Made by a program: the position numbers and the translations under genes. The notes below the pieces were generated by a model. That model saw only the letters and a list, made by a program, of their open reading frames with translations. It made no database searches and was not told the origin of the DNA. Positions 53,328 through 63,372 of a stretch of 64,000 nucleotides of DNA are shown here, one piece after another; the first letter of the stretch is position 1, and the number at the start of each line of letters is the position of its first letter. The DNA lies in assembly GCF_003977755.1 (NCBI RefSeq), contig NZ_RQWN01000002.1:62001-126000 (forward strand), read 5' to 3'. The stretch comes from Haloterrigena salifodinae (GTDB taxonomy: Archaea > Halobacteriota > Halobacteria > Halobacteriales > Natrialbaceae).

Positions 53328-54365
53328 TCACTCCCAGTTGATCTCCTCGCCGCGACTCGAGTCCCGCAGGATGAAGGGACCGATCGCCAGTGTTCGTTTC
53401 GCCATCGTCGCGATCCGCAGGATGAATGCGACCAACAGCAGGAACGGGGCGACGGCGACGGTCGCCGCCGCCGCGACGATCCAGACGAGGACGTCGACGC
53501 CGAGGTAGGTCCCGACCACGGCGTTCGCGTCGAAAAAGAGCAGCATCCCCATCGTGACGACCAGCGCGGGAACGGCGACGTACATCATCGCTCGTGAGAG
53601 GTTGATCAACTCCCACTGGAAATACAGCGTCTTGAAGTGTTCGCGGGCGAGGCCGAACAGCTTCAGCGACTCGAGGAGGTCGTCGTAAGCGGCCTCGGCC
53701 TCGTCGGTGAAGGAGTCAGCGTGGGAGTTCTTGATCCGGCGGGCCCGGAATATCTTCCAGGAGTAGTTGTAGTCCAGCGCGGCCTTGACGACCTCGTAAG
53801 TGCCGAAATCGGCGTCCTCGAGGTCCTCACGGATCGAGTCGGCGTGGGTCGTGACGTTGTCGACGAAGTCGTCGACGCGCTCTTTGAGTTCCTCGTCCTT
53901 GCTCTCCGAGACGGCCTCGCGGAAGTCGGTCGCTCGATCCTCGGAGGCCGCGATGATCGCCTGGACGAACGACGCCGGCTCCGGTGGGCTGATCGGCGCA
54001 TCGATGGACTCCTCGATGTCGGTCCGAAACTCGAGGGCACCGTCGAGTCGTTCGCGCTGGTCCTCGACGGCGCCGAGTTCCTGTGAGAGCACCAGCGAAT
54101 TGATCGTGACAACGAGCGTGACGCCGGTGATCAGTGCAGTGGTTAGGGCCTGAAAGAGCGTCTCGACCGGATCAGCGGTCCCCATGAGCGCCCTGAGCGA
54201 GACGGGACTGACGCGGGCGACGACGAGCAGGCCGACGAAGACGAACAGCATGAGTACCGCGGTGATCAGCCATCGGTTCGCGTTCAGCAGGAGCCAGTGT
54301 TTCGCGGTCGGTGACGCGCTGCGCTTGGCCATCGTGTCGCTGGGCTGGGAGCCGTCGCCGCTCAT
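53328..54365 (-). CDS. 4-TM membrane protein, paralogue 1 of a four-gene family
   Basis: 345 residues. Two N-terminal helices (about 33-52 and 73-95), a 140-residue soluble domain (about 100-245) and two C-terminal helices (about 260-280 and 295-318). Shared signatures: NSLVLSQELGAVEDQRERLD, SPPEPASFV, DFGTYEVVKAALDYNYSWKI, FGLAREHFKTLYFQWELI and AIGPFILRDS. The soluble part is probably cytoplasmic. Paralogues 2 and 3 keep nearly every motif, and paralogue 4 is more diverged. I recognise no described family, so function is unknown. Confidence 0.85.
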   Translation of the reverse strand: MSGDGSQPSDTMAKRSASPTAKHWLLLNANRWLITAVLMLFVFVGLLVVARVSPVSLRALMGTADPVETLFQALTTALITGVTLVVTINSLVLSQELGAVEDQRERLDGALEFRTDIEESIDAPISPPEPASFVQAIIAASEDRATDFREAVSESKDEELKERVDDFVDNVTTHADSIREDLEDADFGTYEVVKAALDYNYSWKIFRARRIKNSHADSFTDEAEAAYDDLLESLKLFGLAREHFKTLYFQWELINLSRAMMYVAVPALVVTMGMLLFFDANAVVGTYLGVDVLVWIVAAAATVAVAPFLLLVAFILRIATMAKRTLAIGPFILRDSSRGEEINWE

Positions 54366-54428
54366 TGCTTTGGCACGAGGGTACGACGATGGTTCGGAAA
54401 TAGTTACGGCAGGACTGCCGTCGGCGAG

Positions 54429-55457
54429 TCAACCCAGATCCTCGTCTCGATCGGACTCCCGCAGGATGAAGGGCCCCATCGCGAGCGTCCGCTTCGCGAC
54501 GGTGGCGATCCGCAGGATATAGACGATGAAGATGACGAACGGCGCGATGCCGATCACGAACCCCGCGCTGGTCACCCAAACGAGGTTATCGATCCCCAGA
54601 AACGTCCCCGGGAACGCGGTGCCGTCGATGTACATCATCAGCAGCGCCATCACCGTGAGGGCGGGGACCGAGACGTACAGCAGCGCCCGTGAGAGGTTGA
54701 TCAGTTCCCACTGGAAGTACAGCGTCTTGAAGTGCTCCCTGGCCGGTCCGAAGAATTTCAGGATTTTGATCATCTCGTCGATCTCGTCGTCCGCATCCTC
54801 CGACAGGTCGTCGTCGTGGTCCGCGCGGATCTTCCGCGCGTCGTAGATCTTTCGCGAGTAGTTGAAGTTCAGCGCGTTCCAGATCACGTCGAACGTGCCG
54901 AACTGGGCGTCCTTGAGGTCGTCCTTGACGACGCGTGCGTTCTCGGTCGTATCGTCGACGTAGTCGGAGACTTTCTCCTGAAGCTCGTCGCTGTGGTCGT
55001 CCGACACCGCCTGCTCGAAGTCCTCCGCTTCCTCCTCGACGCCGTCGACGAGTTCGTAGAGGAACGCCGCGGGTTCCGGCGGGGTCACGTCCTCGTCCTC
55101 GAGCGAGTCCTCGATATCCCGACGGAAATTCATCGCCTCCTGCATCCGATCCCGCTGTTCGCCGACGGCGCCGAGCTCCTGCGAGAGCACCAGCTGGTTG
55201 ATCGTGACGACGATCGACGTGCCCGTGATAATCGCCCCGATGAATCCAGAGAAGATCCAGAAGGTCGCGTTGTGTCGTTCGACGAGTACACGGTGGGGCG
55301 CGAGCCCGAACAGATTGGCCCCGACCAGCACGGCGAACACGATCACCAGCACGGCCGCTGTGAAGAGCCAGCGGTTCAGCCGAAGCAACACCCACAGCCG
55401 CGGGCCGCCGACGCCGGCCCGTTGGCCCAACACGCCGCTCGAGTCCGAGTCGCTCAT
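54429..55457 (-). CDS. 4-TM membrane protein, paralogue 2
   Basis: 342 residues starting MSDSDSSGVLGQRAGVG. Same plan as paralogue 1: TM1-TM2, soluble domain and TM3-TM4. Motifs: NQLVLSQELGAVGEQRDRMQ, TPPEPAAFLYEL, FGTFDVIWNALNFNYSRKI, FGPAREHFKTLYFQWELI and AMGPFILRES. It lies 63 bp upstream of paralogue 1 on the same strand and could form one operon with it. ATG 55457 is chosen because the extension to 55601 is basic and overlaps the promoter of paralogue 3. Confidence 0.85.
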   Translation of the reverse strand: MSDSDSSGVLGQRAGVGGPRLWVLLRLNRWLFTAAVLVIVFAVLVGANLFGLAPHRVLVERHNATFWIFSGFIGAIITGTSIVVTINQLVLSQELGAVGEQRDRMQEAMNFRRDIEDSLEDEDVTPPEPAAFLYELVDGVEEEAEDFEQAVSDDHSDELQEKVSDYVDDTTENARVVKDDLKDAQFGTFDVIWNALNFNYSRKIYDARKIRADHDDDLSEDADDEIDEMIKILKFFGPAREHFKTLYFQWELINLSRALLYVSVPALTVMALLMMYIDGTAFPGTFLGIDNLVWVTSAGFVIGIAPFVIFIVYILRIATVAKRTLAMGPFILRESDRDEDLG

Positions 55458-55603
55458 TGACTGTGTCGAAGGGACCACGCCGTCGGGTAAAAGACTCATC
55501 CGGGCGAAAGCAACCCCGACGTCGACGGCCGCACTTCGTTCCCCGAAGCGGCTACCGCTGACGGCCAAAGGCTTGTAGGAGGGGCCATGGTACGACCGCA
55601 TCC

Positions 55604-56656
55604 ATGAGGAAGTCCGGCGAGAGTGCCAGCGATGAGACGTCGAACACCATGGTCGACCGCGTTCGCGGCGGTCGACCCATGCTGTGGTTTCTGGTCGAGG
55701 GGAATCGCGTTCTCGTCGCCTGCGTGATGCTCGCCGTTTCCTACGCTCTGCTCGTCGTTCTCGGGACGTTCGGCCCCGGCTCCATCTCGAAGCTGTTCGA
55801 CCCCGCTCCGATCGCCTCGACGTTCACCCCGACCATCATCGGGATCATCATGGGCGTCACCCTCATCTTGACGTTCAACCAGTTCGTCCTCGCCGAGGAA
55901 CTCGGCCCGGTCGGCGATCAGCGCGAGCGCATGGCCGGCGCGATGGAGTTCCGCCGAGATACCGAAGACGCCGTCGATCGAACTACCAGCCCGCCGGAAC
56001 CCTCCGCGTTCCTCCGCGGCCTCGTCGACGCGACCGGGGACCGGGCCGACGAACTCATCGCGACGCTCGAGTCCGACCCGGATCTCGACGAGGCGGTCCG
56101 TCAGGACGTCCGCGAGTACGCCGAGGGGATCGCCGCCGACGCCGAGCGGGTCGCCGACAAACTCGAGGGTAAACAGTTCGGCCAGTTCGAGGTCGTCAAG
56201 GCCGCGTTGGAGTACAACTACTCCTGGAAGATCTACACCGGAAACCGTGTGCGAAATCGCCACGAGGAGACGCTCCCCCACGACATCGACGCGCAACTCG
56301 AGGAGTTGCTCGAGGTCCTCAGCTTTTTCGGCCCCGCCCGCGAGCACTTCAAGACGCTGTACTTCCGGTGGGAGATCATCACCCTCTCGCGGTCGCTGGC
56401 GTATCTCGCCCTGCCGGCGCTGGCGGTTTCGGCGTACATGATCCTCGTCTTCGAAGTCGGTGACGTGGCCGGGGTGATCGCGGGGTTCGATCAGGGACTG
56501 TTGTTCGTCGGCCTCGCCTTCGCCGTCGGTGTGACGCCCTTCGCGATCTTCCTGTCATACATCCTTCGGGTCGTCACCGTCGCGAAGTGGACGCTCGCGA
56601 TCGGCCCGTTCATCCTCCGAGAGACCGACCGTGGCGAGGACGTCGGCTGGGAGTAG
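55604..56656 (+). CDS. 4-TM membrane protein, paralogue 3
   Basis: 350 residues. Shares NQFVLAEELGPVGDQRERMA, SPPEPSAFLRGL, FGQFEVVKAALEYNYSWKI, FGPAREHFKTLYFRWEII and AIGPFILRET with paralogues 1 and 2. It is on the opposite strand from paralogues 1 and 2, so the arrangement is divergent with 146 bp between starts (55458-55603). Its stop (56654-56656) directly abuts the stop of paralogue 4 on the other strand: tail to tail with no spacer. Confidence 0.85.
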   Translation: MRKSGESASDETSNTMVDRVRGGRPMLWFLVEGNRVLVACVMLAVSYALLVVLGTFGPGSISKLFDPAPIASTFTPTIIGIIMGVTLILTFNQFVLAEELGPVGDQRERMAGAMEFRRDTEDAVDRTTSPPEPSAFLRGLVDATGDRADELIATLESDPDLDEAVRQDVREYAEGIAADAERVADKLEGKQFGQFEVVKAALEYNYSWKIYTGNRVRNRHEETLPHDIDAQLEELLEVLSFFGPAREHFKTLYFRWEIITLSRSLAYLALPALAVSAYMILVFEVGDVAGVIAGFDQGLLFVGLAFAVGVTPFAIFLSYILRVVTVAKWTLAIGPFILRETDRGEDVGWE

Positions 56657-57706
56657 TCAGGCGTCCTCGCCGTACGTCACGTCGAACGGCCCTTCGTCGG
56701 GGTCCTTCTGGGGGACCATCGGCCCGACCGAGGCGCTACGGCGCGTGACGGTCGCCGTCCGGAGAATGTAGGACACGAGGAGGGCGAGCGGTGTGAGGCC
56801 GACGACGATCAGCCCCATAGTGACGGACGGGAGCACGGCGGCGCTGACGCTCGGGCCCGTGAAGTCGGCGTACAGGAGTCCGATCAGGATCGCGGACAGG
56901 ATCGACGGCACGCCGCAGTAAATCGTCAGCTGCGAGAACCGGGTGAGCTCCCGCTGCAGGTAGGTCGTCTTGAACTGCTCGCGGGCCACGCCGAACAGCT
57001 TCAGGGAGTCGATCAACTCGTCGAGGTGCTCCGCCGCCGTCGGCGACAGTTCGTCGCCGTACTCGCCGCGCAGATACGTGGCGACGTGCAGGTGCCACGC
57101 CTCGTCGTAGTTGATCGCCGCGGAGATGGCCGTGAACGAGCCGAACTCCCCCTCTTCGAGGACCTCGTCGACGCGCTCGGTCCGTTCCTGGATCGCGTTC
57201 GTGTACCGCGTGATGGGCTCGCGGACCTCGTCGTCGCTATTTTCGACCGCGTTCGCGAGGTCGGCGGCGTCGTGACGGATCGATTCGGTGAGCAACTCGA
57301 GGACCCGCGTCGGCGTGGGCGGACTCGCCGGAACCATCGTGGTCGTCGCGACGTCCCGCCGAAAGTCGATGACGCCCTCGAGTCGATCCCGCGCTCTACC
57401 GGCCGCGCTGAACTCCTGAGAGAGAATGAGCTGGTTGACCGAGACGACCAGCGTCACTAGCGAGAACGTTCCGGCGATCATGCCGCTGGCGACGCGCGTG
57501 ACGGAGTTGGGATTCGTAAACGCGATGATTCTGAGCCAGCGGAGGACGACCAGCAGTGCGAGTACGACGCCCGACAGGAGCACCGCGACCGCCACGCGGT
57601 CCCCCTCGACGACGAACCACTCTCGGAACCCGGACAGTACGCCCGATTTCGATCCGACATCTGCTCCGAACGACTCGAGCGAATCGTCCGTCTCGGAGGG
57701 ACTCAT
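56657..57706 (-). CDS. 4-TM membrane protein, diverged paralogue 4
   Basis: 349 residues from MSPSETDDSLESFG. Plan as in the others, but motifs have drifted: NQLILSQEFSAAGRARDRLE, SPPTPTRVLEL, FGSFTAISAAINYDEAW, FGVAREQFKTTYLQRELT and ASVGPMVPQK. The spacing of every block is kept, so homology is clear. Divergence suggests it is not a recent duplicate. The longer frame to 57904 adds a basic N-terminus and is rejected. Function unknown. Confidence 0.82.
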   Translation of the reverse strand: MSPSETDDSLESFGADVGSKSGVLSGFREWFVVEGDRVAVAVLLSGVVLALLVVLRWLRIIAFTNPNSVTRVASGMIAGTFSLVTLVVSVNQLILSQEFSAAGRARDRLEGVIDFRRDVATTTMVPASPPTPTRVLELLTESIRHDAADLANAVENSDDEVREPITRYTNAIQERTERVDEVLEEGEFGSFTAISAAINYDEAWHLHVATYLRGEYGDELSPTAAEHLDELIDSLKLFGVAREQFKTTYLQRELTRFSQLTIYCGVPSILSAILIGLLYADFTGPSVSAAVLPSVTMGLIVVGLTPLALLVSYILRTATVTRRSASVGPMVPQKDPDEGPFDVTYGEDA

Positions 57707-57956: not shown

Positions 57957-58466
57957 ATGACCCAGCAGGAGTCGACGAGCCGACGCCGCCTCCTCGCGGC
58001 GGTCGGTGCGGGCGTCTCGGCCGCGGTCGCCGGCTGTACCGGCAGCGGGGGCCTCGCCGGCGAACCCTCCTACGAGGACGGCAACGGCGTCGAAATAAAC
58101 GCCAGCAACGTCTCGAGTCGAAACACCTCGGAGATGTCCACGGCGGCGGCGCTCGCCAATCAGCAGCCCTCGCAGTCGGTGACGCCGCTAGACCCGCTCT
58201 CGCTGACCGACCACGAGTTTATCGTCGAAGACGGCTATCTCGGGTCGACCGTGCAGGGAACCGTCGAGAACACGGGCAGCGATCGGCTCCAGATCGTCGA
58301 AGTGCGAACTCGGATCTACAACGACGCCGGCAACGTGATCGGTCAGTATCTGACCACGACAGGAGACCTCGGGGGCGGCGAAACCTGGGAATTTCTGGTG
58401 GTCGTCCTCGAGGCGCCGTCGGACGTCGCCGACTACGACATCGCGGTGTTGGGAACGCCGTCCTAG
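57957..58466 (+). CDS. Tat lipoprotein with an FxLYD-like domain
   Basis: 169 residues. Tat signal SRRRLLAAVGAG (about 8-19) with a lipobox VAGC (Cys about 28), so it is lipid-anchored outside the membrane. The Gly/Ser/Asn spacer precedes an FxLYD-type beta sandwich (about 85-160: LGSTVQGTVENTGSDRLQIVEVRTRIYND), often a binding or adhesion module. Function unknown. It is convergent with the following HTH gene (36 bp between stops). Confidence 0.88.
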   Translation: MTQQESTSRRRLLAAVGAGVSAAVAGCTGSGGLAGEPSYEDGNGVEINASNVSSRNTSEMSTAAALANQQPSQSVTPLDPLSLTDHEFIVEDGYLGSTVQGTVENTGSDRLQIVEVRTRIYNDAGNVIGQYLTTTGDLGGGETWEFLVVVLEAPSDVADYDIAVLGTPS

Positions 58467-58502: not shown

Positions 58503-58862
58503 TCAGTCGGTGGACTCAAGGAGTTCGTCGGCGACGCCCTCCTCGACGATTTCGGGGGCGACGTTGAGCGCGTACGCGGGGCGTCCCTTCCCAGTCGGCG
58601 ACGTCCCTTCGGTTTCGATCTCCTCGACGAACCCCTCGTCCTCGAGTCGGTAGAGCGATCGCATTACGTCTGCTTCAGTGAGCGTCCCGATGACGCCCAC
58701 ATTGACGCCCTCGAGTTGCGTCCTGCAGACGCGTCGCAGCACGTGGGTCTGGGCCGGCGTCTCGTCGCGTCGCTGCAGTTCGGCGACGCCAAGTAAGACG
58801 ACTTGGTTGGTCAGCGAAATCTCGTCGAACGCGTCCGTATCTGTCTCCGTATCCGTGGCCAT
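58503..58862 (-). CDS. winged-helix DNA-binding protein
   Basis: 119 residues. One wHTH (about 15-100): LTNQVVLLGVAELQRRDET, ...TEADVMRSLYRLEDEGFVEE and GKGRPAYALNV as wing. The middle resembles the winged-helix of Cdc6/Orc1-type and other haloarchaeal small regulators. It lies 126 bp downstream of the pspA gene, same strand, so it may be its regulator or cotranscribed. Target unknown. Confidence 0.8.
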   Translation of the reverse strand: MATDTETDTDAFDEISLTNQVVLLGVAELQRRDETPAQTHVLRRVCRTQLEGVNVGVIGTLTEADVMRSLYRLEDEGFVEEIETEGTSPTGKGRPAYALNVAPEIVEEGVADELLESTD

Positions 58863-58988: not shown

Positions 58989-59828
58989 TCAGGCGTTCTC
59001 CTCGTCCTGAAGCTCCGCGAGTTCGGCCTCGACTTCGCTGTCGTCGACCTCCGCCTCCATGTCCTCGATGTCCTCCTCGACGGCCTCGTTCTCGACGTCG
59101 CCGGCCGGTTCGGCCTCGGTTTCGCTGCTTCCGTCCCCCATCTCGGATTTCAACGTCTCGAGTTCGGCCTCGACGCCGCTGTCGGTCTCCAGTTGCTCGA
59201 GTTCGCGATCGATGTTGTCCTTGTCCGAGAGGACGTCGTCGAACGCGCCGGACTCGTGGAGTTCGTCCATCGCGGCGGCTCGGGCTTCCATGTCTTCGGT
59301 CTGCTCCTCGGCGCGATCGATCGCTCGACCGACGTCCTCGAACTCCTCGCCGGTGGCCGTTATCGCTTCGGACACCGTCGAACTCGCCTTCGCGGCCTCG
59401 TGGCGGGCCTTCATCGTCTCCTTCTTGGTGCGGAACTCCTCGATGCGGCTCTGGAGCTCGTTCTTCTGGTCGATCAGCTTGTCCTGCTGGCTCTGTAAGT
59501 TCGTTATCTGGCGCTCGAGATCCTCGATCTGGTTCATCTTCGTCTTCTTCTTCTCGAGTGCGCGCCGCGCCAGATCCTCCTGGCCCTGCTGGACCGCGGT
59601 TCGGGCCTGATCGTTGTGTTTGTCGACGTTCTCCTCCAGGCGCCGTTTCTGCATCTCGAGGCGCTTTTTCTGCGTGGTCAGATCCGCGATGCCCCGTTTG
59701 ACGTCCTGGAGCTGGTCGCGCATCTGCTCGTAGGAGTAGTCGAGCGTCTCCGTCGGATCCTCGGCGCGGTTGAGCACCGAGTTGAGCTTCGACCGGATGA
59801 TGTAGGAGGTCCGAGAGAGGATGCCCAT
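58989..59828 (-). CDS. pspA: PspA/IM30 family membrane-stress protein
   Basis: 279 residues. Long coiled coil (about 25-190: ETLDYSYEQMRDQLQDVKRGIADL... ) as in PspA/Vipp1, with an acidic C-terminal tail beyond about 215. The N-terminal MGILSRTSYIIRSKLNSVLNRAEDP is the amphipathic membrane-binding helix. PspA oligomerises on stressed membranes. ATG 59828 matches family starts. It is flanked by an HTH gene downstream (58503) and an ArsR-type zinc regulator upstream (59985). Confidence 0.93.
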   Translation of the reverse strand: MGILSRTSYIIRSKLNSVLNRAEDPTETLDYSYEQMRDQLQDVKRGIADLTTQKKRLEMQKRRLEENVDKHNDQARTAVQQGQEDLARRALEKKKTKMNQIEDLERQITNLQSQQDKLIDQKNELQSRIEEFRTKKETMKARHEAAKASSTVSEAITATGEEFEDVGRAIDRAEEQTEDMEARAAAMDELHESGAFDDVLSDKDNIDRELEQLETDSGVEAELETLKSEMGDGSSETEAEPAGDVENEAVEEDIEDMEAEVDDSEVEAELAELQDEENA

Positions 59829-61041: not shown

Positions 61042-62682
61042 ATGACCGAACGCTCGACCGCCGAACAGATGCCAATCGCCGCTCGCCTTCGTCGGGGGAT
61101 CCGGTCGTTCGAGCCGATGTACCTCGCGCTGCTGGGGCTGCTTGCGATTCCGAGCTACGTCTTCGAATCGCTCGCGGTCCTGGAGCTCTTCGAGATGTTC
61201 TTCTTCTTTTTCCTCTGGCCGTTCGTCGCGCCGCTCGTCGAACTGGTGGTCCGACGCGGGACCGACGAGGACGAGACGGTCGAGCCGACCGACTGGATCT
61301 ACATGGGGAACTGGCGGGAGTACGCCGCGTGGTTTCTCATGCTGCCGCTGGGATTTCTCAATCCGTTCGTCCTTGCACAGGACGCGATGCAGTGGCTTGG
61401 TAGCGCCGTCGCGTTTGCGCGCCACCGCGGCTCCCTCCCCGACGCAGAGGGCTACGACCAGCGGGTCTCCTACCGACTCCCGTTCGATAGCGCCTGGACC
61501 GTCGTGAACGGCAGCTACGACCACGACTACTCGCACTCGTGGTTCCCGGCGACCCAGCGGTACGCGTACGATTTCGTCATCACCGACGCGGAGGGACGGA
61601 CCGCCCCCGAGGCGTCGGGCGCGGACGTCGAGGGCTACTACTGCTACGACGAACCGATCCTCGCCCCCGCCGCCGGCGTCGTGGTCGACGTCCTCGACGA
61701 CGATCTCGAGCCGTCCCGCGGCGGCGGCGTTGCCCACCCTCTGAAGCGGGACATCCGCGGGAACTATGTGGTGCTCCAGCACGCCGCCGACGAGTACAGC
61801 TGTCTGGCCCACCTCGTCCCCGGCAGCGTGACGGTCGCACCCGGGGACCGCGTACAGCGCGGCGAGGAGATCGGTCGCTGTGGTCACTCCGGGAACTCCT
61901 CGGAACCCCACCTCCACTTTCAGCTGCAGGATCACCCGAACTTCGTGGTCGCGGCCGGGCTCCCGATCGCCTTCGATGACGTTGCGATCGAGTGGCCCGG
62001 CGACGAGGCGCCGATCACCGACCCCCTGTCCGATGCCGAGGCAGATGACGCGAACGAGCGCGAACGCGAGGCCATACCGAACCCTATCGAGACCATAGCG
62101 AATCTTGAGGACGGCACCTACCGCCCTCGAGCGCACCTCACCGCCGGGCAGCGCGTCACACACGTCGACCGGGATGACGGCGACTCGAGTCGAACCCACA
62201 TCGACGATTCCGACCCCACGATCGTCGCCGACAAGGCGGGTGCCACGCGGGCCTCGAGCCAGCACCGGACCGGACTCGCGTCTCTCCAGCAGGTCGGTTT
62301 CGGGGCGTGTGTCAGCGGCGTGACCACGTTCTTCGCGTCGATTTTCGTGTCCTCGCTCACCGTCGCCGCGCTGCTCGGCGCTGTGGCAGCTGTCGGCGTG
62401 AGTTATCGAGCGGGTGCCACGTTCCTGCGCAGGGACGGCTCCAAACACCGCTCGAGTTCGATCGGGACCGCCGTCGGCATCGGTATCGTTGCCGCCGTCG
62501 TCGGGTGGTACGGCGTGACCGGGCCGGCCATCGGGATCGGCGTACAGGGCCTCGGAATTTCTGTGCTGCTGCTCGGGTTCGTCGGCTACGCCGTCCTCGG
62601 CGAATACGAGCGGCTGCGGCTGCGCGAGTCGTTCCCCGACCGTGGCGGTTCGCGATCGCGCCCATCATCGCCGACCGAGTGA
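61042..62682 (+). CDS. M23-like membrane peptidase-fold protein
   Basis: 546 residues. Two N-terminal helices (about 20-40 and 50-70) and a third at about 95-120 precede an M23/LytM-like domain (about 140-325). Metal Asp in QRYAYDFVIT (about 173-182) and the HxH in PHLHFQLQDHP (about 292-302) are kept, as is the CLAHL His. The first metal His (normally HxGxD) is Arg, so activity is doubtful. Three or four more helices fill the C-terminus. Archaea lack murein, so the substrate, if any, is unknown. Confidence 0.85.
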   Translation: MTERSTAEQMPIAARLRRGIRSFEPMYLALLGLLAIPSYVFESLAVLELFEMFFFFFLWPFVAPLVELVVRRGTDEDETVEPTDWIYMGNWREYAAWFLMLPLGFLNPFVLAQDAMQWLGSAVAFARHRGSLPDAEGYDQRVSYRLPFDSAWTVVNGSYDHDYSHSWFPATQRYAYDFVITDAEGRTAPEASGADVEGYYCYDEPILAPAAGVVVDVLDDDLEPSRGGGVAHPLKRDIRGNYVVLQHAADEYSCLAHLVPGSVTVAPGDRVQRGEEIGRCGHSGNSSEPHLHFQLQDHPNFVVAAGLPIAFDDVAIEWPGDEAPITDPLSDAEADDANEREREAIPNPIETIANLEDGTYRPRAHLTAGQRVTHVDRDDGDSSRTHIDDSDPTIVADKAGATRASSQHRTGLASLQQVGFGACVSGVTTFFASIFVSSLTVAALLGAVAAVGVSYRAGATFLRRDGSKHRSSSIGTAVGIGIVAAVVGWYGVTGPAIGIGVQGLGISVLLLGFVGYAVLGEYERLRLRESFPDRGGSRSRPSSPTE

Positions 62683-62718: not shown

Positions 62719-63372
62719 ATGAGCGACGTCTTGATTCCGGGGGGTCGCGACGTCCGCGGGACGCTCGAGGAACCGCCAGATGGGACCGATGCGATCGTCG
62801 TCGCCTGTCCACCCCATCCCCAGCAGGGGGGATCGCGCAGCGACGGGCGCCTCGTGGCGGTCGCAGCGGCGCTTCGCGGGTTGGGAATTGCCAGCCTCCG
62901 GTTCGATTACGGCCCGTGGGACGAGGGGTATGGCGAGCGCGAGGACGTGCGCAATGCCGTCCGCTGGGCTCGTAAGAAATACGACGGTGGGGGTTGTAAA
63001 TCGGCCGACGACGGTGAAACGGACGCTGACGCGCTCCCAGTCGGCGTCTTCGGCTACAGTTTCGGCGCGTCGCTGGCGCTACTCGCCGCAGCGGATGTCG
63101 ACCCCGACGCTGTCGTGGTTCTCGCGCCGACAGCGCGACTTGGCAACGATCTCGACACACTGGCCGCGCTCGAGGCCCTCGAGATGCCGATCCACGTCCT
63201 GTACGGCGAGCGGGACACGACTGTCGACTGGGAACCGGTGGCCGAACGCGCTCGTGAACGCGGCGACACGGTCACCGCGCTGGCCGGCGACCACTTCTTC
63301 CTCGGCAAACGCGACGCCATCGCGAGCGAGGTTGCGACGTTCTTCGCGGAGGCGTTTCGCGAGACGACGTAA
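62719..63372 (+). CDS. alpha/beta hydrolase
   Basis: 217 residues. Nucleophile elbow GYSFGASLAL (about 118-127), with Asp in YGERDTTVDW (about 176-185) and His in GDHFFLGKRD (about 196-205) completing the triad. The compact size resembles the dienelactone hydrolase/YcjY-type soluble enzymes. Substrate unknown. ATG 62719 is used rather than 62689. It starts 37 bp after the M23-like gene on the same strand and may be cotranscribed. Confidence 0.88.
   Translation: MSDVLIPGGRDVRGTLEEPPDGTDAIVVACPPHPQQGGSRSDGRLVAVAAALRGLGIASLRFDYGPWDEGYGEREDVRNAVRWARKKYDGGGCKSADDGETDADALPVGVFGYSFGASLALLAAADVDPDAVVVLAPTARLGNDLDTLAALEALEMPIHVLYGERDTTVDWEPVAERARERGDTVTALAGDHFFLGKRDAIASEVATFFAEAFRETT

What the first reader, a model, noticed from the sequence alone, without database searches (positions are those of the whole stretch)
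53328..57706. Four consecutive paralogous 4-TM proteins of an unrecognised family
Seen directly: four genes of 342-350 codons with an identical plan (two helices, a 140-residue soluble domain, two helices) and five shared motif blocks, including SPPEP, AREHFKTLYFQWE and IGPFILR. Paralogues 1 and 2 are tandem, 3 is divergent, and 4 is tail to tail with 3 with zero spacer. I recognise no described family. Keeping four diverged copies side by side suggests hetero-oligomers or specialised sensors. The conserved NYSWKI and FKTLYFQWE blocks sit next to predicted membrane interfaces, which hints at a channel or lipid-facing complex. Inference only.
Basis: partly seen in the sequence, partly recalled or inferred. 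Interest (0 to 1): 0.85.

Follow-up and report, generated by a model that had tools for sequence, protein, structure and literature searches.

The report
Haloarchaeal membrane protein family beside pspA
Four neighbouring genes are old duplicates of a membrane-protein family that almost every salt-loving archaeon of class Halobacteria carries, usually beside the membrane-stress gene pspA, yet no protein database searched names it and its job is unknown.

Summary
Observation confirmed. Window 53328-57706 holds four intact paralogues (342-350 aa, 31-47% identical to P0001) with one plan: two transmembrane (TM) helices, a cytoplasmic helical domain, two TM helices. AlphaFold models of two of them agree. 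No curated family in Pfam, NCBIfam, PHROGs or PADLOC matches, nor any PDB sequence or fold at E<=0.001.

New here: the family is nearly universal in Halobacteria (228 of 242 genomes, up to 14 matches each). Its usual position is just downstream of pspA, same strand; in the window pspA is 58989-59828. Outside the class I found it only in a nanohaloarchaeon and in a low-GC MCR-positive methanogen, both apparently by transfer. The four copies belong to four separate clades, so they are ancient duplicates. The four-gene block recurs in five congeners and Halobiforma.

The pspA link is not obligatory. Three genomes lost pspA and kept the gene in its place, both recipient lineages lack pspA, and 13 genomes have pspA without it.

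Best reading: an autonomous, halophile-specific envelope-stress membrane protein, probably an oligomeric channel, because TM2 carries a family-wide polar stripe. The channel step is inference. Bestrophin homology was tested and not supported. A TM gene next to pspA (HVO_2637) was noted before in Haloferax.

The parts
53328..54365 (-). P0001, family paralogue 1 (345 aa); TM1 31-52, TM2 66-96, cytoplasmic helices 100-255, TM3 about 257-277, TM4 292-318
   Evidence: its own Natrialbaceae clade (18 rows, support 100)
54429..55457 (-). P0002, family paralogue 2 (342 aa)
   Evidence: clade of 14 Natrialbaceae rows, support 99
55604..56656 (+). P0003, family paralogue 3 (350 aa), the rarest clade (Haloterrigena and Halobiforma in the tree sample)
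56657..57706 (-). P0004, family paralogue 4 (349 aa), most divergent, stop-to-stop with P0003; the copy nearest pspA
   Evidence: clade of 18 rows, support 100
58989..59828 (-). pspA (PspA/IM30, ESCRT-III superfamily), same strand and upstream of P0004/P0002/P0001
   Evidence: Pfam PF04012 E 2.5e-34; linked to the family in 52 of 81 loci
58503..58862 (-). 119-aa protein without a Pfam family, between pspA and the block; recurs at this place in Natrialbaceae
57957..58466 (+). 169-aa lipoprotein-like protein (RRRLLAAVGAG...AGC start), no Pfam family; recurs beside P0004-type genes
62719..63372 (+). alpha/beta hydrolase of the conserved pspA neighbourhood

Best explanation
The four genes are ancient tandem duplicates of a halophile-specific integral membrane protein whose ancestral place in Halobacteria is directly downstream of pspA. 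The protein works without PspA but is likely co-expressed with it as part of the envelope-stress (salt or osmotic) response. Each chain has N- and C-termini in the cytoplasm, four TM helices, and an acidic cytoplasmic helical-bundle domain between TM2 and TM3. Most likely the chains form oligomers in which the polar face of TM2 lines a pore. The cytoplasmic domain and the conserved charged ring at the cytoplasmic membrane face (R31, E96, R241, E242, K245, R317) would set the gate, so that the protein passes ions or small osmolytes when the membrane or cell volume is disturbed. Shown: the family, its spread, topology by prediction and charge bias, pspA linkage, independence from pspA. Inferred: co-expression, oligomers, pore, gating.
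For: 228/242 Halobacteria genomes carry it. It is linked to pspA in 52 of 81 family-selected loci: 44 same strand downstream, 8 convergent, none in other arrangements; 17 are directly adjacent in tandem at 36-143 bp. In pspA-selected loci it is found in 28 of 55, 25 of them same-strand downstream. pspA is close to single-copy. Independence from pspA: pspA is missing between the hydrolase gene and the family gene, with the family gene retained, in L210-L212; both recipients of transfer lack PspA. TM2 polar stripe Q72, T76, T80, T83, T87, S/Q90, S94, with positions 80-94 polar in 96-100% of 103 sequences, moment permutation p 0.01; no such face in TM1 or TM3. Positive-inside charge bias. Spread to a nanohaloarchaeon (L129, complete genome) and an MCR-positive methanogen of 37% GC ties it to extreme salinity.
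Against: No channel family matches; homology to bestrophins is not supported. A polar TM2 face may only pack against other helices. The pspA neighbourhood as a whole is conserved (hydrolase 29, pyrG 24, thrS 19, guaA 17 of 55), so linkage partly reflects frozen gene order. No expression data. Extra PspA genes on three plasmids have no family gene annotated or adjacent.
Confidence: 0.38

Rival explanations
1. Membrane anchor or sensor of PspA: the cytoplasmic helical domain recruits or releases PspA when the membrane is damaged, as PspB/PspC, LiaI or SPFH proteins do in bacteria. Duplicates give sensors of different signals.
For: Operon-like position after pspA over several families of Halobacteria. 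Popp et al. 2022 (PMC9239133) noted a TM protein downstream of pspA in Haloferax volcanii and proposed an anchor or signalling role. Bacterial PSP systems use lineage-specific membrane partners (PMC11237479).
Against: Retained where pspA was lost (G057, G148, G070) and in two pspA-less recipients. PspA occurs without it in 13 genomes. Extra plasmid PspAs have no annotated family gene beside them. Many family copies lie on plasmids away from pspA.
Confidence: 0.27
2. A non-conducting membrane-organising or sensor protein whose partner is something else, for example the DUF4177 protein encoded immediately upstream (overlapping or nearly so) in the plasmid subfamily.
For: Overlapping DUF4177-family gene pairs in L049, L050/L087, L052 (PF13783). 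No catalytic signature among invariant residues.
Against: The DUF4177 pairing is confined to one subclade; no such partner lies in the window.
Confidence: 0.22
3. A remote member of the bestrophin channel superfamily too diverged for profiles.
For: Same topology; the P0004 model hits KpBest over its length several times (ranks 5, 6, 12, 14, 24); the best hhalign segment puts FKT of the family on the bestrophin ERI..TP motif before TM3.
Against: Foldseek E about 0.13, TM-score about 0.2; hhalign probability 0.2%; no Bestrophin hit in 103 members; the Bestrophin-like family PF14023 is not found above cut-off in 61 haloarchaeal genomes.
Confidence: 0.08

Closest known systems
Haloferax volcanii HVO_2637, TM protein downstream of pspA (Popp et al. 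2022, PMC9239133)
   Same: Membrane protein encoded directly downstream of a haloarchaeal pspA
   Different: Described for one strain, with weak bPH_4/EphA2_TM hits, no family defined; I could not obtain its sequence to test whether it is a member
Bacterial PSP membrane partners (PspB/PspC, LiaI/LiaF, SPFH proteins)
   Same: Integral membrane protein in a pspA locus
   Different: No sequence match to these families; can persist without pspA; different size and topology
Bestrophin channels (PF01062; KpBest, E. coli YneE)
   Same: 4 TM, cytoplasmic helical part between TM2 and TM3, TM2 as candidate pore helix
   Different: No significant sequence, profile or fold match; bestrophin invariant residues not found

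Membership tests
Bestrophin (PF01062) | Match to the family profile | tested here: not met
   No hit in 103 members; hhalign of A2 and A3 against a 9-sequence bestrophin profile gives 0.2% probability; HMM searches both ways empty
Bestrophin (PF01062) | Bestrophin fold of the protomer | tested here: inconclusive
   KpBest among the top P0004 fold hits but E about 0.13, TM-score about 0.2
Bestrophin (PF01062) | Pentameric anion-conducting pore | not testable with these tools
   single-chain models only
PSP-system membrane partner | Operon-like linkage to pspA | tested here: met
   52/81 family-selected loci and 28/55 pspA-selected loci, almost all same strand downstream
PSP-system membrane partner | Present only together with pspA | tested here: not met
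   Family without pspA in G057, G148, G070, G271 and L129's genome; pspA without family in 13 genomes
PSP-system membrane partner | Physical interaction with PspA | not testable with these tools
   needs pull-down or co-localisation
PspB/PspC/LiaI-LiaF or any Pfam family | Profile match above cut-off | tested here: not met
Known or candidate phage-defence protein | PADLOC profile match | tested here: not met

The most novel reading that the evidence does not exclude
A previously undefined, nearly class-universal family of haloarchaeal membrane channels or stress sensors, coupled to the PspA membrane-repair locus but able to act alone, duplicated into sets of diverged subunits and passed to other extreme halophiles as part of adaptation to saturated brine.
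Probability: 0.35. Interest if true: 0.8.

Novelty: new variant of a known kind. Interest (0 to 1): 0.6.

Why it matters
PSP networks in archaea are described as largely unknown (PMC9239133). A membrane-protein family in 94% of sampled Halobacteria genomes, sitting at pspA and carried over to unrelated extreme halophiles, gives a defined and genetically testable candidate for how haloarchaea sense or survive envelope and osmotic stress. It also accounts for a large set of 'hypothetical protein' genes on haloarchaeal chromosomes and megaplasmids.

Tried and rejected
Chance or artefact: rejected. Phage or viral origin: no match in the phage collection or viral contigs. Defence system: no PADLOC hit. 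Obligate PspA partner: rejected as strictly stated. Bestrophin membership: tested by hmmscan, HMM both ways, hhalign and Foldseek; not supported. In-frame stop codons flagged in some family matches: the case checked (L048) is simply the natural C-terminal stop. Attempts to reach a Haloferax volcanii sequence to test HVO_2637 failed: accessions not held, no Haloferax. The sigma-70 promoter and terminator scan was uninformative for an archaeon.

Full report
OBSERVATION. The four frames exist at the stated coordinates. They align over their full length with 43 invariant columns, and profile matches are at E 1e-177 to 1e-147. P0003 and P0004 touch stop to stop. Motif blocks are shared approximately, P0004 departing most. 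Family-averaged hydropathy gives segments near 32-53, 75-91, 261-281 and 290-319. Basic residues are concentrated in the N- and C-terminal parts and the middle domain and are nearly absent from the two short loops, which by the positive-inside rule means N-in, C-in and a cytoplasmic middle domain. AlphaFold models of P0001 (pLDDT 80, pTM 0.72, 103-row alignment) and of the most divergent P0004 (pLDDT 77, pTM 0.72) show the same helix plan.

IDENTITY. No family above cut-off in Pfam, NCBIfam, PADLOC or PHROGs. Scanning 103 relatives one by one found only scattered weak Pfam matches. No PDB chain by profile (best E 0.087), and no PDB fold at E<=0.001 for either model. I could not check arCOG, InterPro or AlphaFold DB clusters.

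DISTRIBUTION. The window's genome carries four further copies: C1:298675, C1:175392, C2:846899, and a broken one at C5:225034-225715. In a class-wide sample 228 of 242 genomes have at least one; among close relatives up to 14 matches per genome. 67 haloarchaeal plasmid records hold copies, annotated as hypothetical proteins where annotated. None was found in phages or viral contigs. Outside Halobacteria I found two carriers. One is Candidatus Nanohaloarchaea M3_22 (L129, complete chromosome). The other is G271, a 37%-GC genome with methyl-coenzyme M reductase whose copy is 71% identical to a Halorarius plasmid copy but has host-like GC3. Its size, GC and MCR fit a Methanonatronarchaeia methanogen, but that name is inference. 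In the tree G271 nests beside Haloarculaceae-type copies and L129 beside Haladaptataceae-type copies, so transfer out of Halobacteria is the simplest reading.

HISTORY OF THE FOUR COPIES. In the tree (SH-aLRT only, quick method) P0001, P0002, P0003 and P0004 fall in four separate clades, each with orthologues in other species. The duplications therefore predate the genus. The same four-gene arrangement is found in five congeners and G023 (coordinates), in Haloterrigena salina L055 and, with an extra frame, in Halobiforma L062. Most other Natrialbaceae have two or three copies.

THE pspA LINK. The most frequent neighbour is a PspA/IM30 gene; in the window it is 58989-59828 (PF04012). Among 81 loci selected by the family, 52 have pspA nearby: 44 with the family gene downstream on the same strand, 8 convergent, none otherwise; 17 are directly adjacent in tandem with 36-143 bp. 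As a control I started from pspA in a genus-spread set of genomes that deliberately included those lacking the family: 28 of 55 loci have the family gene, 25 of them same-strand downstream. The same control shows that the whole neighbourhood is conserved (alpha/beta hydrolase 29, pyrG 24, thrS 19, guaA 17), so linkage alone is weaker evidence of joint function than the first count suggests.

INDEPENDENCE FROM pspA. PspA is present in 13 of the 14 genomes without the family. Conversely, G057, G148, G070, the methanogen and the nanohaloarchaeon have the family but no full PspA match. In the first three the hydrolase gene and the family gene stand next to each other with pspA missing from its usual place. 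Extra PspA genes on three haloarchaeal plasmids have no family gene annotated or adjacent. The protein must therefore do something without PspA.

MECHANISM. TM2 carries a polar stripe at a 3-4 spacing (72, 76, 80, 83, 87, 90, 94), whose positions 80-94 are polar in 96-100% of 103 sequences, with a helical moment beyond permutations (p 0.01). TM1 and TM3 have none and TM4 is borderline (p 0.07). Invariant charged residues cluster at the cytoplasmic membrane face. No catalytic pattern is apparent. I therefore favour an oligomeric, stress-responsive channel whose expression is tied to the pspA locus, and hold a PspA anchor/sensor as the main rival. The channel step is inference. A relation to bestrophins, which share the topology, was tested and not supported, although bestrophin structures recur among the non-significant fold hits and the best profile segment is in register.

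PRIOR KNOWLEDGE. PspA of H. volcanii rises under high salt (Bidle et al. 2008, cited in PMC3235422). Popp et al. 2022 (PMC9239133) call archaeal Psp networks largely unknown and mention one TM protein downstream of pspA in H. volcanii, HVO_2637; it may be a member but I could not test it. A term search of Ravi et al. 2024 (PMC11237479) found no word beginning with 'Halo', and the passages read describe no such partner.

VERDICT. Real, conserved, undescribed as a family in the sources searched, with a new genomic context and a testable role. Mechanism uncertain.

Noticed in passing
window 61042-62682 (+): 546-aa protein with an M23 peptidase domain (PF01551, E 3.3e-15) in a haloarchaeon, next to the pspA neighbourhood; unusual for organisms without peptidoglycan.
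   Followed up: no
L049:5771-6990, L087:7311-8532, L052:5711-6990: A DUF4177 gene overlaps the start of a family gene in a plasmid-rich subclade, a possible two-gene unit.
   Followed up: partly
L211:6860-7354, L212:4904-5383, L210:3338-3832, L065:2837-3439: TM_HPP (PF04982) membrane proteins recur beside family genes (two verified by Pfam; the others by similarity).
   Followed up: partly
G000:C5:225034-225715 (L016/L017): A broken family copy in the window's own genome, split over two frames with the middle missing.
   Followed up: no
   Followed up: partly
window 58503-58862 (-) and 57957-58466 (+): Two small proteins without a Pfam family (119 aa; lipoprotein-like 169 aa) recur between pspA and the family genes in Natrialbaceae.
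   Followed up: no
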